Below, in pieces: positions 22,791 to 53,017 of a stretch of 64,000 bases of DNA. Source of the DNA: Toxorhynchites rutilus septentrionalis (Eukaryota; Arthropoda; Insecta; Diptera; Culicidae); assembly GCF_029784135.1 (NCBI RefSeq), contig NC_073746.1, forward strand, positions 264,267,598-264,331,597. The letters are read 5' to 3'. The stretch's first letter is position 1. Each line of letters starts with the position of its first letter. Both the position numbers and the translations under genes were made by a program. The notes below the pieces were generated by a model, which was not told the DNA's origin, made no database searches, and saw nothing but the letters and a program-made list of their open reading frames with translations.

Positions 22791-22801
22791 ATCGGCCGCT
22801 T

Positions 22802-22839
22802 TATAAAGCGCAAGGACTCCGGCGATTACCGTGTCATTC
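22802..22839 (+). promoter_or_regulatory. Candidate nerfin-1 core promoter
   Basis: TATAAA is at 22802-22807 and a TCATTC initiator-like hexamer at 22834-22839, a spacing slightly longer than usual, about 200 bp upstream of the start codon. The sequence fits an insect TATA-Inr promoter, but no transcript data are available and an upstream noncoding exon is possible. Confidence 0.35.
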
Positions 22840-22953: not shown

Positions 22954-23085
22954 ATGAATAAGTGGACCTAAGTTTTAGTGTAAAATCAACATTAAGCGAA
23001 AGATAGTGTTTGGGGAGCGTGCGCGTGTGACATGTTAGCATGGCTTCATCGCATCTCCAAATCCGCCCGCCAATGGGTCTCCTGA
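22954..23085 (+). promoter_or_regulatory. Two upstream ORFs in the nerfin-1 leader
   Basis: A 5-codon uORF lies at 22954-22971. A 17-codon uORF starts at 23032, 8 bases before the main ATG, in another frame, and ends at 23085 inside the coding region. The main start has A at -3 and G at +4; the overlapping upstream ATG follows GTGAC and is weaker. Both would lower translation unless scanned through. Confidence 0.5.
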
Positions 23086-24365
23086 CGACGGTGGCCGATT
23101 TGCCACCAAGTTATAAAGCGCAGTACATCAGTGTCCCAATCAAACTTACCACCGATTCACCGCTGGATTTGACGGTGAAGCAAAGCTTCGTGGGTGCAAT
23201 CACACCTCCGCTAACGCCATCGCCGTTGAAGAAACGCTACCGGGAGGATAACGACGAAAATCGTGATGGGAACCAGGCTAAACAGATTAAACTCGAATTG
23301 AAGGTGGAAGGGAAAAAGGAAGCCACGCCAGTGAAACCTGTAAAGGTGAACGTGGCTCCAAAGAGTTCCAAAAACCCTCCACCCGTGGCTCCTGTTTCGA
23401 AAGAACGCCGTACAAAAGCATCCAGAAAGTTGAAGTTTGACGAGGAGACGGCTTCGCCGGTATCCGGCACAGTTATCATCTCGATAGAAGATGTTATTAA
23501 CAGTGATATACCCCGGGAATCCGGCGATATTGATCCTCAGTTCAATTTGGTGGAAATATCTGACGAGGTGCGCGCAGAATTAGCCACTATTCCAAATGTA
23601 ATTGGTGCCTATAATTGCAAACTTTGTCGGCTCGAATTTGAAGATGCATTTGGACTAGCCCAGCATCGTTGTGCTTGCATTGTACTTCTTGAATACCGCT
23701 GTCCGGAATGCAGTAAGCGGTTCAACTGTCCAGCTAACTTGGCATCCCATCGTCGATGGCATAAGCCCCGTGATCAGGTCGCTAAAAAAGGTGAGAGCGA
23801 CAAACTCAGTGAGGATTCAGAATGTAAATATCGTTGCGAACAATGCAACAAAACGTTTAAACGTCCAGCCTATCTGAAGAAGCATCTGTTAACGCATAAC
23901 AAGTCTAAAAATAAATCGAAACATAATCAGCTAAGTGCCGAAACCGAAACAAACGCAACAATCAACTCAGCCACAAACTATCATAACAGTGGTGACGAAT
24001 CAAATCACTCTGGAGACAGCGGCAACACAGTCTACGTAAATCGTGTAACCGAAATACCGGAAAGCCTGTTTACTGTAGTGGCTAGTGAACCACCCCTTCA
24101 ACCTGATATTGTGCATTACAATTACCACTCAAACTCTGGAACATCGCAACAGTCTTCAACCACCGAACATAGCGAAGTGGAGGAAGATGATGACTACGAG
24201 GAGCGTGCCTTGGTAATAAACGAAGACTATCAGGATGAAATAGAAGAAATTCGCTCAACCTATTGTGACCGCTTCACGGAGGAGGAAAACATTGCCGCAG
24301 CAGCACTGGCTCATCTGCGCAATGGACCATCGGTGATTCGACACACAACTGCTTTAGTTGTCTAA
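23040..24365 (+). CDS. nerfin-1: Nervous fingers 1 / INSM-type zinc-finger transcription factor, 441 aa
   Basis: This is a nuclear DNA-binding protein of the INSM1/nerfin family; in Drosophila nerfin-1 is needed for axon guidance and for keeping neurons differentiated. Three Cys/His fingers are visible: C193/C196 with H209 (a degenerate C2HC finger, YNCKLC), C221/C224/H237/H241 in YRCPECSKRFNCPANLASH, and C266/C269/H282/H286 in YRCEQCNKTF. The second finger plus RRWHKPR is the family hallmark. PLDLT at 41-45 resembles a CtBP-binding PxDLS motif (inference). A proline- and lysine-rich spacer precedes the fingers and an acidic region follows. The single exon is close to the Drosophila protein in length. 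The ATG at 23040 is preceded by AGC, a good context. The long 3' UTR suggests microRNA control. Confidence 0.92.
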   Translation: MASSHLQIRPPMGLLTTVADLPPSYKAQYISVPIKLTTDSPLDLTVKQSFVGAITPPLTPSPLKKRYREDNDENRDGNQAKQIKLELKVEGKKEATPVKPVKVNVAPKSSKNPPPVAPVSKERRTKASRKLKFDEETASPVSGTVIISIEDVINSDIPRESGDIDPQFNLVEISDEVRAELATIPNVIGAYNCKLCRLEFEDAFGLAQHRCACIVLLEYRCPECSKRFNCPANLASHRRWHKPRDQVAKKGESDKLSEDSECKYRCEQCNKTFKRPAYLKKHLLTHNKSKNKSKHNQLSAETETNATINSATNYHNSGDESNHSGDSGNTVYVNRVTEIPESLFTVVASEPPLQPDIVHYNYHSNSGTSQQSSTTEHSEVEEDDDYEERALVINEDYQDEIEEIRSTYCDRFTEEENIAAAALAHLRNGPSVIRHTTALVV

Positions 24366-26127
24366 GGAACGTATACTCGTAAGTCGCCTCTTATTAGATG
24401 CTTAAGTTCTATTTTCAAGGTAAACGGTGCTCTACTTCACAATTCGTCTCGTATATAAGCTCTGTAAATTTTAGCAACAAAAAATCAGCTTCACACCAAA
24501 TAAGACTTATATAGGCTACTAATTACTTTATGAAAATAACTGGAGCAAAGCTCACATAGATTTAAGCCTCTCGTTTTGACGGAATAATTCCTGCTCTTTG
24601 AAATCTATTTACTTTACATTTAACGCTGTCCTACTCTATGCGCTATCTATGCTCAATGCGTTTTTCTCTTTTTTCTGTTCATGTTTGAAAATTATTTTCT
24701 AAATTAACGCAGGAACTTTCGTCCTCCAAACTTGTGTACATTCGGTTTAAAATTTTGCAAAAATTTTAAATTCACCCAAAGATGAGTATCCATCTAGTCA
24801 TTCCCTAACATTAAGATTACTTAATATAAAGAGCTTAATAATATATTAACATTATTTATTTGAGACCCTCATCTCACTACCCATGTTGAATCTTTCACAT
24901 GAGAACTATTTCTAGAAATTTTAGAAATAAAATCTCAAACTTGTACAGACACACACACACTAAGAAGACAGAAAGTCATGTAAGACAAAATATTAGTGAG
25001 ATTTTTTTTTTGCATCCGATCTTAGTTTCGTTGGAACACTACTTTTACAGTATGCTTTAAGAATGATAAAAGCACTAGCGCAGGTTCGGGTTGGCTTTTG
25101 CAATCAAGTGGAAGTTTGTGCCATATTACCATAAAAAACAACGCAAAATCGATGCTTAATAATGTAGGTTTGTATACAAGGAGCCTTTCAGCGAGTAGAA
25201 TCTAGTCGATTGCCCTCAAAGCAAAATGCAAGTCAAATAATATCTAGTCTGATGCGTAAAGCGATTCTAAATCTAGTCATACACCTCGATGAAATTGTTT
25301 CATTCATTCGAGCGAGATAGAGAAGCCAAAGTCAGGGTAGATTATAAAATCTAGTCGTGAGTTTTCTGGTCATTTTTTACTATTCTAGTCACACCAATTA
25401 GAAGCGAATGAACTTTTAGTTCAAAGTCTCTATGATAAAAAGAAGAAGAAAGGTAGTCACGTCAAACCAAATGTATAATATAGATGTATGTGTAATTAAG
25501 TCGGCTTTCCTTTGATCTCATAACAAAATCTAAATTGTAATCTATTTTTTTTTTCAAAAATCATCACTACCTAGTCCCTTAAAAAGCTCTAAGTATTTTC
25601 ACCCAAAAACTAGTCCCAAACATCGAACTTAATTTAAGTTAATTTATTTTATTTTATTTATGTACATATAAACAAATAATCCACTGCTACAGAAGAGTTC
25701 TATTTGTAATAATTAATGATTCGAAAATGTAATCTAAATATTTACGTACAAATATAATTTAAATATTTATTTATTATTGAACTTAGATCGTAACATACAA
25801 AGTAAACGCTGAAAAGAAGTAGAGCACCGCTCGTCAAATTGTAAAACACGAACAATCATAATCGCTTAGTACTATAGGATATACAATTGTAACCGAACGG
25901 CAGACTAACAGGTACAGTAGAACGTTACAATGTAATAACGAATGAAATGTGATATTAGATGAGTAAGTTTTTGCAAAAAGGCGAATCTTTACACTCGTAT
26001 TCATGTTTCAACTTTTTATCGCGAGAGAACAGTTTCATATGCGTTTGAAATAAATTTTAAGAATAGTTGTAAAATGACACAAAAAAAAGTATTTTGTACT
26101 ATTTAAAGCCTAAGAGTTTGAAATAAA
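24366..26127 (+). promoter_or_regulatory. nerfin-1: nerfin-1 3' UTR with miR-279/286/996-type sites
   Basis: This stretch of about 1.76 kb has no coding in any frame. TCTAGTC, complementary to nucleotides 2-8 of the miR-279/286/996 seed (GACUAGA), occurs at 24793-24799, 25201-25207, 25243-25249, 25272-25278, 25350-25356 and 25384-25390. The first, fourth and sixth are followed by A, making 8-mers. Six-base matches CTAGTC lie at 25571-25576 and 25610-25615. Possible poly(A) signals AATAAA are at 24926, 26049 and 26122; use of the first would keep only one site. miR-279 repression of nerfin-1 is established in Drosophila. Confidence 0.85.
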
Positions 26128-26136
26128 TTGTTTATT
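26122..26136. terminator. Back-to-back poly(A) signals for convergent genes
   Basis: AATAAA at 26122-26127 on the plus strand serves nerfin-1. AATAAA read on the minus strand at 26131-26136 serves the convergent zinc-protein gene, 39 bp past its stop codon. The two signals are separated by 3 bp, so the mature 3' ends probably overlap. Confidence 0.65.
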
Positions 26137-26174: not shown

Positions 26175-26513
26175 TTATTTCCACAAGTCCACTTTACTTC
26201 TTACAAAATGTACCGACGGCAGCACGCAATTCTTTTCGCACTTGCATCTGGTACCGGAAACGAAATCAAATGATCCCACCTTTTGTCCACATTTGAGGCA
26301 TTTTAATTTCCCTTTTGTCCATTGTGACTGTTCGATTTCTGCTGTTATCCAATCATTAAGGTGGTCTTCGTGCAGGAAAACTTCGGAATTCTCCAACTCT
26401 GTCGGACAGGTCGGTACAGCGTTGATACTGCTTTCGTTACCGTGAATAGGAAGAATGTACTGCTCGTCAATTTCCAGCATCATATTGGCACATTTTCGAC
26501 ATTTTACAATCAT
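26175..26513 (-). CDS. Small RNF180/DUSP12-type zinc-binding protein, 112 aa
   Basis: The protein has paired cysteines C5/C8 (CRKC), C36, C72/C75 (CLKC) and C90/C92/C96, with WTKGKLKCLKCGQKVGSFDF and VHFVRSKVDL. This pattern is the zinc-binding region shared by the N-terminus of the E3 ligase RNF180 and the C-terminus of the phosphatase DUSP12; the wording is closer to RNF180. No RING or phosphatase domain is attached here, so it may be a stand-alone insect form or one exon of a longer gene (a possible acceptor, TTGCAG, lies about 30 bases before the ATG on the minus strand). Its function is unknown. It is convergent with nerfin-1. Confidence 0.8.
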   Translation of the reverse strand: MIVKCRKCANMMLEIDEQYILPIHGNESSINAVPTCPTELENSEVFLHEDHLNDWITAEIEQSQWTKGKLKCLKCGQKVGSFDFVSGTRCKCEKNCVLPSVHFVRSKVDLWK

Positions 26514-30125: not shown

Positions 30126-31264
30126 CTACTGAGAACGACCAAATTCTAAGCATATATTGTGAAGTGCACAGCATACATTTATAATTTGAGCGCATTTAGT
30201 AGGATTGTAGTGAAGTTGTCTCGCGCCAAGGATGCATCTAAACCGATTTTTTAGTAAACCGATTGTCCGCTCGACGATAGCACGACCCAAGGCATGCCTG
30301 CGATTAAAATCGCTCTCCAAACTCCCTTCCTCCGCTGCTCTGAATGGCGTTACTAACCAAGGTTCCGATGGATAACCAGCATCACCTGAAAATATTTTAT
30401 CACACAGTACATACAAGTATACTAAAATATTGTAGTTGAACATTACCTAGAATCTTAGTATTAACTTCACCATTTTGGTGAAGCTGCTCAAAGTGAGTTC
30501 TTGCAGGGCTTACACGCCATATATGAGAGTCATGATTAGATCCCTGGAAGGTAGGATCAACGAAACGAATCCTTTGCTGATCGTCACAAACCTATGTTGA
30601 TAAAAAAGAGTATTTGTTCATTGATTTGTTAATTCAAATACTAATAATACTTACAATCAGAACGTTGAGACTATAAAATCCCTTCCGATTAAAAAACAAA
30701 TTTCGATTCAGCTTAGGTGGAATAATTTTTACGTGGGTTCCATCCAAACACATAATAACACCCGGAATTGATGTTTTCTGATAGAAGTGTAGTTTAGCAC
30801 GCCGCTGTTCGTCTTCCGTCATATTTAGGGAAATCCATTTCTTACACAGTGTCCGCTCCAGAATGTTAAGCATTTCAGTCAGCACCTTGGAAAATGTGGG
30901 CTGTGCTATGGCAATGTGATAATCTTGCCCTGCTCCATGTTGATAATTTCCTTCAGCAAAGAATCGCAAACATGCTGCGAGTTTCACCTCCGTGGATAGA
31001 CCACCTTTCCTTGTGGTAAGGCAGTTCTCAATTTCCTCTAAAACGTACCGAAAAGCTTCCTTACTTAGACGAAAACTTTTGATGAATCTGAATAAGGGCA
31101 AAATTAATCAATAAGAGAAACAAACATGGGATTTTTGAGACGGATACTTACGCTTCATCAGAAAGTTTCATGAAGTCGGTTGATTTTCGGTGGTTTCGCC
31201 GATGGTAGCAAGGCATTCCAATTTCTTCTTGCTCCGCCAAAATCGGTAACAAAACGGAATCCAT
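30126..31264 (-). CDS. PIF/Harbinger DDE transposase (HARBI1-like), 316 aa, four exons
   Basis: The minus-strand exons are 31152-31264, 30655-31087, 30447-30591 and 30126-30385, all with GT-AG borders and consistent phases, giving 951 nt. It starts MDSVLLPILAEQEEIGMPCY. The catalytic triad is visible: D153 in MCLDGTHVKI, D203 in SNHDSHIW and E269 in AIVERTIGLLKNRF. The length is slightly short for the family but all core blocks are present (FFAEGNYQHGAGQD, QPTFSKVL, VDPTFQGSNHDSHIW). There is no stop or frameshift. It would cut at the 3336-bp element ends and duplicate 3 bp. Its accessory protein gene is damaged. Confidence 0.92.
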
Positions 31265-38861: not shown

Positions 38862-40531
38862 ATGTGGCCCATCCAAACATCAGCTGATGCAGCCGTTTGT
38901 ATTGTTTTGTATATTGCATGCCTGCTTTACTCGTTCTATAAAAACTACGAAATCAGTGATGGTTTGTATAACATAAACATAATTTGACTCACCAACCAAC
39001 ATTTTCTAATGATTCGTTATAACGTTATTCTCAGATAGACTCCAGAACTATTACTACCTCGAGGAAGGATGGTCTGTATTCAAAGGACGTCGTCGTGATG
39101 ATTACGACTGGGAATGGGAAATATACAAAAAATACGCTATTAGCAACGCGGTGATTTTCCTCATCCATGGAGTTATATTCGAAGCTATCAGGATCCTGCG
39201 AGTGAAACGCATTTCTCTTATATTGGCCACATTCGGTGGGGTGGCTATACTTCACATCTATGGATATAAAGTTCTTTTTATTCTTCTTTTTCAAAATTTA
39301 ACATTTTTCGCGCTCAACTATTGGTTAACCAGCATAACCTTACTGTGGGTTAAAGCTTTTTTATGGATAGCACTGATTAATAGTATTAAAATTCTATTCT
39401 TTTATGATAAGCTCAATGTTCTACTCGACATTGATAACGATAAACTTTTAGAATTTAGTATCATAATATCATGGAACGTTATAAAATGTACATGTTTCTG
39501 TTTAGAGCGAAGCAATACGAAAGCAAACACCAAAGACTTTCGATTGATAGACATGCTGGGATATTCGTTTTATTTTCCTCTTCTACTATATGGCCCGGTG
39601 ATTATTTACGATCGCTTCAAGGAGTGCCACAAAATAAGTGGACCATTTGAGAATACAAATAGAATTTGTCGACTGAAAAAGTTGGTTATACGACTGCTTA
39701 TTTGCTACTTTTGGGCACTGGTTATGGAAGCTGGACAGCATTTCTTCTACATTAATATTATCCAACTGGATGTGGAGGTAAGAAGTATGCTTCATATTCT
39801 TAAAACTATTGAAACTTACGATTTTTGCAGCTATTGCAGCGTGTTAACCTTTGGGTACTGTATGGATTAGGTTATCTTATGGGCCAATTCTTCTACGTAA
39901 AATATGTTGTGTTCTATGGCATTGGAATAGCTTTCGGAAGCTTCGATGGAGTTGAGATGCCACAGAAACCCATTTGTATCGGCAGGGTTCATCTTTATTC
40001 CGATATGTGGAAATATTTTGATCGTGGATTATATGAGTTTTTGTTCAAGTATACCAACGCATTAAAGATCTTTAGCACATTTAACATCCATTCATTTCCC
40101 CCCATTTCAGATATATTTATACCCAACTGTGTACCAAAACTTCATCTCACACGCGTAAAGTGCTGGCAAGCTCAATTACATTCATATTCATCTACATTTG
40201 GCACGGCTTGTATACGTTCATATTAATTTGGTCTGCATTGAACTGGATATGTATCGTGCTGGAAGGTTTTGTTAAGAACATCTTTGGAAGCAACACCCGT
40301 CTTAACGCTTTGGTTGGGACACACGTCTTCATCTTATCAGTGCTATCAAACTTCTTTTTCTTTGCGCGGGAGGAGGTGGGTTATATTTACATCGAGAGAA
40401 CCTACTTCGAAAGTTTGAACAACTATTTGGCTCTGTACGTAGTTGCTTATTGCTTCTACACCACTGGAGCATGGTTTAGGTCCGTAGAAAGTCAATATGG
40501 AGGTCCAACAAGGAAAACACTTAAAGATTAA
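38862..40531 (+). CDS. rasp: Protein-cysteine N-palmitoyltransferase Rasp (Hedgehog acyltransferase), 493 aa
   Basis: Four exons: 38862-38961, 39035-39777, 39831-40048 and 40111-40531, with GT-AG introns of 53-73 bp and matching phases. This MBOAT-family membrane enzyme palmitoylates the N-terminal cysteine of Hedgehog (and of Spitz-type ligands in flies) in the secretory pathway. Visible features are many hydrophobic segments from residue 10 onward, YYLEEGWSVFKGRRRDDYDWEW near the N-terminus, LGYLMGQFFYVKYVVFYG and MWKYFDRGLYEFLF before the active site, and the MBOAT histidine H385 in FIYIWHG. The length matches Drosophila Rasp and HHAT. An alternative acceptor at 39839 would remove three residues. 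It is convergent with PIN4. Confidence 0.93.
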
Positions 40532-51659: not shown

Positions 51660-52452
51660 TCGTGTACCGGAATAGAGGTGAATATTTCACAACGATTCTG
51701 AATTTCCACCGTGGAATCGCGATGTTGGTGAATTCACCATAGTTCACCGACTTCGGTGAATGTGAACGTGAAAACAGTGGTGAATATAGACGTCAAAATG
51801 TTTCCTCGTTCATGTTCACGTTCGAATGTCCCAAGGCATTCTGAAAATTATTTCACCGTGAACTGTAAAAGGATATGTTTAGCAATTCTCATGTTTTCAA
51901 TGAAAATTTTGATATGGATGCAATTCGTTCTATTCACCACGATTTTTTGAGTTGTTTGTTATGCCGGATTTACAATCCTTCACAATGAGCGCGATTTTTT
52001 TCTTCAATAACGATTTTTATTCGTCAACCAATCAGAGCAAAGCGCGAAATCACCCATGACAGCGCGAAAAAAGATAGAACTCTCCAAGCTTTGGCTGCGA
52101 AAATCGCGTTGCTTTGATGAGAGACACTACATACATCAGACAGGTGGAACAAAATATGCTTGATGGGGGGAACGATATATCGAAATAAATGTTCAGTTCT
52201 ATACATATGAGGCGCTTCATAAAGTGAGAGCTGAATCGATTACCTGTTGCAAGTGTTTTTCTGCATAATAATAATTATTTTTACGCATTTTTGTTAATAT
52301 TGGATTGAATTCGTTAGTTTTTCGATTATTAATTATCTGGAGTTTTATACTTGCTTTCACATTTCTAGCGTTATGATTTTGTTCCACCAATTTAGTACGA
52401 CCTTGTCCATAACAAATAATGGCAGTTTGGTTAGAGAAACGCAGGTTTGACC

Positions 52453-52708: not shown

Positions 52709-53017
52709 GTTTGACCGACAGATTATGACAGATCATCTCGCGATATCGCGCACCATTGTAAAGAGCTGCACTGAAAAATATCGCGAGTGAGTATATCGCA
52801 TGCGATTAAAAGCCTGCATTTGAAGAAAGCATTAGCAATGTAGTTCACCGTGAAATGATCGTACTATTCCACCACGTGTTCAAGTTCACGTTCAAGGGAA
52901 CTTTTAACCGAGCTATACTGCCATTATTTGTTATGGACAAGGTCGTACTAAATTGGTGGAACAAAATTATATCGCTAGAAATGTGAATGCAAGTATAAAA
53001 CTCCATATAATTAATAA

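What the first reader, a model, noticed from the sequence alone, without database searches (positions are those of the whole stretch)
24793..25390. Six miR-279/286/996 seed sites in the nerfin-1 3' UTR
TCTAGTC occurs six times in 1.76 kb of 3' UTR (three followed by A), plus two CTAGTC six-mers. By chance about 0.1-0.2 copies of a given 7-mer would be expected. The seed of miR-279 and its relatives is GACUAGA, and miR-279 repression of nerfin-1 is known from Drosophila CO2-neuron work. The site density suggests the switch is conserved and strong in mosquitoes, where CO2 sensing has a different neuron layout.
Basis: partly seen in the sequence, partly recalled or inferred. Interest (0 to 1): 0.85.

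Follow-up and report, generated by a model that had tools for sequence, protein, structure and literature searches.

The report
miR-279 target sites in mosquito nerfin-1
The tail of a mosquito nerve-cell control gene carries six copies of the docking site for a small silencing RNA already known to control the same gene in fruit flies, so this looks like a mosquito example of a known switch rather than a new kind of system.

Summary
TCTAGTC occurs six times on the + strand (24793, 25201, 25243, 25272, 25350, 25384) within 1,765 nt downstream of an intact nerfin-1 orthologue (ORF 23040-24365). About 0.1-0.2 copies are expected, and 0 of 3,000 simulated sequences at each of two Markov orders reached six. 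It is the most over-represented of the 1,495 distinct 7-mers there, and the only one of 70 Aedes seed families clearly enriched. [quoted passage not shown] Regulation of nerfin-1 by miR-279 is established in Drosophila and predicted in Tribolium, so a mosquito case is expected. Conservation of the sites among mosquitoes could not be tested, because no other mosquito DNA could be reached; the CO2-neuron claim is also untested. Two sites are predicted poorly accessible, and five of six lie beyond an early AATAAA at 24926. A predicted 14-bp long-range stem enclosing all six sites is an unexplained extra.

The parts
23040..24365 (+). nerfin-1 (INSM1-type zinc-finger) ORF, 441 aa
24366..26130 (+). 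inferred 3' UTR, stop codon to just past the last AATAAA
   Evidence: sequence, AATAAA positions; no RNA data
24793..24800 (+). site 1, 8mer TCTAGTCA; the only site before the early AATAAA; strongest predicted 3' pairing (miR-996 -23.3, miR-279 -19.1 kcal/mol)
25201..25207 (+). site 2, 7mer-m8; low predicted accessibility (8th percentile)
25243..25249 (+). site 3, 7mer-m8, 42 nt after site 2
25272..25279 (+). site 4, 8mer, 29 nt after site 3; best predicted accessibility of the six (65th percentile)
25350..25356 (+). site 5, 7mer-m8; low predicted accessibility (5th percentile)
25384..25391 (+). site 6, 8mer, 34 nt after site 5
25571..25576 (+). CTAGTC six-mer
25610..25615 (+). CTAGTC six-mer
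24926..24931 (+). early AATAAA; an mRNA ending here would keep one of six sites
26049..26054 (+). late AATAAA
26122..26127 (+). last AATAAA
24425..24438 (+). 5' arm of a 14-bp perfect long-range stem enclosing all six sites (role unproven)
25816..25829 (+). 3' arm of the same stem

Best explanation
The six TCTAGTC copies are canonical miRNA target sites (three 8mers, three 7mer-m8) in the 3' UTR of a culicine nerfin-1 mRNA. [quoted passage not shown] possibly miR-286 or miR-2945 in embryos) pairs with them and brings in CCR4-NOT, so the mRNA is deadenylated and decays; this would clear nerfin-1 from cells that should not keep it. Shown here: gene identity, site number and place, excess over chance, specificity to this seed family. 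From the literature: the miRNAs exist in Aedes and Culex, and the fly nerfin-1 UTR is silenced this way. Inferred: that it happens in this species, and in which cells.
For: Six sites against 0.1-0.2 expected; top of 1,495 UTR 7-mers; of 70 Aedes seed families the only one clearly enriched, the other 69 having 5 m8 sites together against 7.6 expected. Not a duplicated repeat. miR-279, miR-996, miR-286a/b and miR-2945 of Aedes aegypti all carry the seed GACTAGA (table read); miR-279, 996 and 2945 are printed with the same sequence, apart from length, in a paper on Aedes albopictus and Culex quinquefasciatus (passages). In flies nerfin-1 is the top single-miRNA target of one prediction, has three predicted sites each for miR-279 and miR-286 in another, is derepressed in miR-279/996 mutants, and its UTR confers CCR4-NOT-dependent decay with miR-279. 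Site 24793 pairs beyond the seed with miR-279 and miR-996 better than most UTR controls (p=0.004 each, uncorrected for 30 comparisons).
Against: No expression, Argonaute or reporter data; no cross-species alignment could be made (genome search did not complete). Predicted accessibility is ordinary to poor: percentiles 48, 8, 46, 65, 5, 46. None of the 30 site-miRNA 3'-pairing tests passes a Bonferroni limit of 0.0017. Five of six sites lie after the AATAAA at 24926. The species' own miRNAs were not seen; the window holds no Rfam match.
Confidence: 0.85

Rival explanations
1. Most nerfin-1 mRNA in the relevant cells ends at the early signal (24926). Only site 24793 is then used, and the distal cluster matters only in a long, perhaps neural, isoform.
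For: AATAAA at 24926; site 24793 has the strongest predicted extended pairing.
Against: The region after 24926 is poor in G/T (0.33) compared with that after 26049 (0.47), though 26122 is no better (0.30); a crude measure. Five further sites in the distal part would be hard to explain if it were rarely made (inference).
Confidence: 0.2
2. The copies are a chance or repeat-born cluster without function.
For: AT-rich UTR with 8 direct-repeat families of 16-27 nt; TCTAGTCA is not in excess over the whole window.
Against: Poisson P(>=6) at most 7.5e-8, at most 0.0012 after allowing for all 16,384 7-mers; no repeat family covers the sites; it is the expected motif in the expected gene.
Confidence: 0.03
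3. The motif is bound by something other than these miRNAs, such as an RNA-binding protein, or acts at the DNA level.
For: No direct evidence; sequence counts alone cannot exclude it.
Against: All six are on the sense strand of the UTR and the reverse complement is absent from it, which speaks against a DNA element; the motif is the exact seed complement of a miRNA family known to control this gene in flies.
Confidence: 0.04

Closest known systems
Drosophila nerfin-1 regulated by miR-279/996/286 (PMC1183519, PMC1180435, PMC4456407, PMC3510486; passages of each)
   Same: Same gene, same seed, several sites in the 3' UTR (two anchors plus many scattered sites in flies; three predicted), repression shown in flies.
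   Different: Here a mosquito; six 7-8mers in a cluster with five inside 191 nt; an extra culicine miRNA with the seed (miR-2945); no experiment.
Tribolium nerfin-1 as predicted miR-279/996 target (PMC6961396, passages)
   Same: Same gene and miRNA family, reported as strongly conserved predicted target between beetle and fly.
   Different: Number of sites in Tribolium was not in the passages seen.
miR-9 control of nerfin-1 in Drosophila neuroblasts (PMC12064045, passages)
   Same: Same gene, miRNA control through its UTR.
   Different: Here only one 7mer-A1 miR-9a site (24776) and no 7mer-m8.

Membership tests
miR-279 seed-family target | Exact matches to miRNA positions 2-8 in the 3' UTR, in excess of chance | tested here: met
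   Six sites
miR-279 seed-family target | Sites conserved among related species | not testable with these tools
   No other mosquito DNA found; the genome search unanswered in 10 of 10 numbered calls
miR-279 seed-family target | A miRNA with this seed is present in the organism | not tested
   Known in Aedes and Culex; this genome could not be searched; no hairpin in the window
miR-279 seed-family target | Accessible site context | tested here: inconclusive
   Percentiles 48, 8, 46, 65, 5, 46
miR-279 seed-family target | Repression depends on the sites and the miRNA | not testable with these tools
   Needs a reporter
nerfin-1 orthologue | INSM1-type zinc fingers and N- and C-terminal blocks shared with proteins named nervous fingers 1 | tested here: met
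   42% over 418 aligned positions to Musca autumnalis 'nervous fingers 1'; 44% over 359 to a Drosophila erecta protein; INSM1 is the closest solved chain
nerfin-1 orthologue | Distinct from the fly paralogue nerfin-2 (name recalled) | not tested
   No tree with nerfin-2 was made

The most novel reading that the evidence does not exclude
Mosquito nerfin-1 is under isoform-gated, multi-input control: the short mRNA keeps one strong site, the long mRNA gains five clustered sites inside a loop closed by a 14-bp long-range stem, and the culicine miR-2945 joins miR-279/996/286 as a repressor. The cis side of the proposed fly/mosquito CO2-neuron switch is then intact in mosquitoes, and any difference must lie in where the miRNAs are made or in later steps.
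Probability: 0.12. Interest if true: 0.6.

Novelty: new member of a known kind. Interest (0 to 1): 0.36.

Why it matters
[quoted passage not shown] One way to lose such a switch is to lose the target sites in nerfin-1. A mosquito nerfin-1 with six sites argues against that route and points to miRNA expression or later steps, which can be tested directly. It also brings in miR-2945 as an unexamined regulator. Otherwise it confirms an expected, old target relation.

Tried and rejected
Chance and tandem duplication: rejected. Other miRNA families: of 70 Aedes seeds only the miR-279 family is clearly enriched; the next, miR-263a, has one site (33 of 2,000 simulations have one or more), not notable among 70 tests. 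Cross-species UTR comparison: relatives sought in viral contigs and bacterial/archaeal contigs, none found; the protein database gave relatives but no DNA (each listed its best 120 only). miRNA hairpins in the window: none at Rfam gathering scores. Tree of 14 proteins (window and 13 of the hits; P0013 and the rest left out): the window groups with the unnamed P0001 at 99/100 and its place among culicines is otherwise open, so no genus is named.

Earlier reports: a published account of miR-279 sites in a mosquito nerfin-1 was sought (PMC library only; titles, abstract starts, and passages of some papers). I saw none. Of the 10 papers I opened passages of five (PMC12193925, PMC7466983, PMC2268679, PMC3871958, PMC8929568); the other five I saw as listings only. 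Subscription papers are mostly not held; the 2008 Science paper on miR-279 and CO2 neurons is not held, nor did I see the 2007 nerfin-1 UTR paper that I recall. nerfin-1 with alternative polyadenylation gave one paper, on mouse colon by its abstract; with long-range RNA structure none.

Controls and dropped rows: the seed control used 78 rows (70 distinct seeds) of the Aedes table. Left out before counting: repeated hairpins of one mature sequence, further members that I judged by eye to share a listed seed, and all star strands but miR-281*. Against the long-range stem: 26 of 1,000 shuffles hold an exact inverted repeat of 14 nt or more, though 0 of 1,000 one as stable; 8 of 71 overlapping same-size windows of the 64 kb hold a more stable one. 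For the UTR ended at 26130 or 26145 the minimum-energy fold lacks the stem (by 1.3 kcal/mol in the latter), while the ensemble favours it.

Full report
What was checked. The six TCTAGTC copies are at exactly the stated places on the + strand, three followed by A, with two more CTAGTC six-mers. They lie in the 1,765 nt from the stop of a 441-aa ORF (23040-24365) to just past an AATAAA at 26122. The ORF is a nerfin-1 / INSM1-type gene: its best relatives are one unnamed protein (94%) and mosquito proteins (83% Topomyia and below), it aligns at 42% with Musca autumnalis 'nervous fingers 1' and 44% with a Drosophila erecta protein, and INSM1 is the closest solved chain. In a tree of 14 proteins the window sits with the unnamed P0001 (99/100) among culicines, its place otherwise open.

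More than chance? Expectation is 0.13 and 0.19 copies by order-1 and order-2 Markov models, never above three in 3,000 sequences each; the rest of the window gives 0.10-0.11. Of 1,495 distinct 7-mers in the UTR, TCTAGTC has the strongest excess. Poisson probability is at most 7.5e-8, or 0.0012 after multiplying by all 7-mers. Among 420 permutations of its letters no other exceeds two copies. The reverse complement is absent from the UTR. No repeat family covers the sites. Spacings are 408, 42, 29, 78 and 34 nt, so five sites lie within 191 nt. Over the whole window the 8-mer TCTAGTCA is not in excess.

Which miRNA? The Aedes aegypti table of PMC2797818 (section read) prints five mature miRNAs with the seed GACTAGA: miR-279, miR-996, miR-286a, miR-286b and miR-2945. 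Its notes place miR-2945 (as miR-M3) among miRNAs with no homology found outside mosquitoes; it has 33 embryo reads there. A paper on Aedes albopictus and Culex quinquefasciatus prints miR-279, miR-996 and miR-2945 with the same sequence apart from length (PMC2834634, passages). Of 70 seed families tested, only this one is clearly enriched; the other 69 have five m8 sites together against 7.6 expected. [quoted passage not shown] the remaining 24 of 30 comparisons are above 0.05, and none passes correction. Five of six sites carry A opposite position 9, as miR-279/996 would pair (p=0.024), which is weak.

Mechanism. [quoted passage not shown] another predicts three sites each for miR-279 and miR-286 (PMC1180435, passages); miR-279/996 double mutants massively derepress nerfin-1 in heads (PMC4456407, passages); a reporter with the fly nerfin-1 UTR has a half-life of 31 minutes with miR-279, rising to 182 with an inactive POP2 (PMC3510486, passages). 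Tribolium nerfin-1 is a predicted conserved target (PMC6961396, passages). By homology the mosquito sites most likely work the same way. Not shown here: that this mRNA is repressed, in which cells, and whether the sites are conserved.

Points against or open. Predicted accessibility is ordinary to poor: percentiles 48, 8, 46, 65, 5 and 46 within the UTR. An AATAAA at 24926 would leave one site; G/T content downstream is 0.33 there, 0.47 at 26049 and 0.30 at 26122, which does not decide between them. Cross-species comparison was impossible (genome search did not complete). The CO2 idea comes from fly work: the review PMC3871958 (passages) says miR-279-mutant flies grow palp CO2 neurons whose place and wiring resemble those of mosquitoes, and that miR-279 was proposed as the switch. 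Intact sites in one mosquito argue against loss of the cis side but cannot decide it, and the fly authors infer nerfin-1 control outside CO2 cells.

An extra feature. A perfect 14-nt inverted repeat (24425-24438 with 25816-25829) encloses all six sites. No shuffle of 1,000 has an exact pairing as stable, although 26 have one of 14 nt or more, and 8 of 71 same-size windows of the 64 kb hold a more stable one. Ensemble pairing is 0.89-1.0 in the UTR alone, and 0.54-0.57 in an mRNA that I assumed to start at 22835. Without conservation this is a lead only.

Verdict. Observation confirmed; canonical miR-279-family target sites; a new member of a known kind.

Noticed in passing
24425-24438 and 25816-25829: Perfect 14-nt inverted repeat, 1,377 nt apart, enclosing all six sites; predicted as a stable long-range stem in the long 3' UTR.
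   Followed up: partly
26178-26513 (- strand): Convergent 112-aa ORF with cysteine pairs, no Pfam match; a minus-strand AATAAA at 26136-26131 would make its 3' end overlap that of nerfin-1.
   Followed up: partly
24776-24800: A 7mer-A1 match for miR-9a (CCAAAGA, 24776-24782) 17 nt before the first miR-279 site; miR-9 also controls nerfin-1 in flies.
   Followed up: no
22800-22807: TTTATAAA about 230 nt upstream of the ORF, possible TATA box of nerfin-1 (read by eye).
   Followed up: no
294-1310; 30634-31101 (-): Transposon ORFs: the first matches DDE_3 above its cut-off; the second matches DDE_Tnp_4 only weakly, below its cut-off.
   Followed up: partly
52376-52426 and 52917-52967: Perfect 51-nt inverted repeat about 490 nt apart, perhaps ends of a small transposon.
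   Followed up: no
39151-39870: ORF matching the MBOAT acyltransferase family.
   Followed up: no
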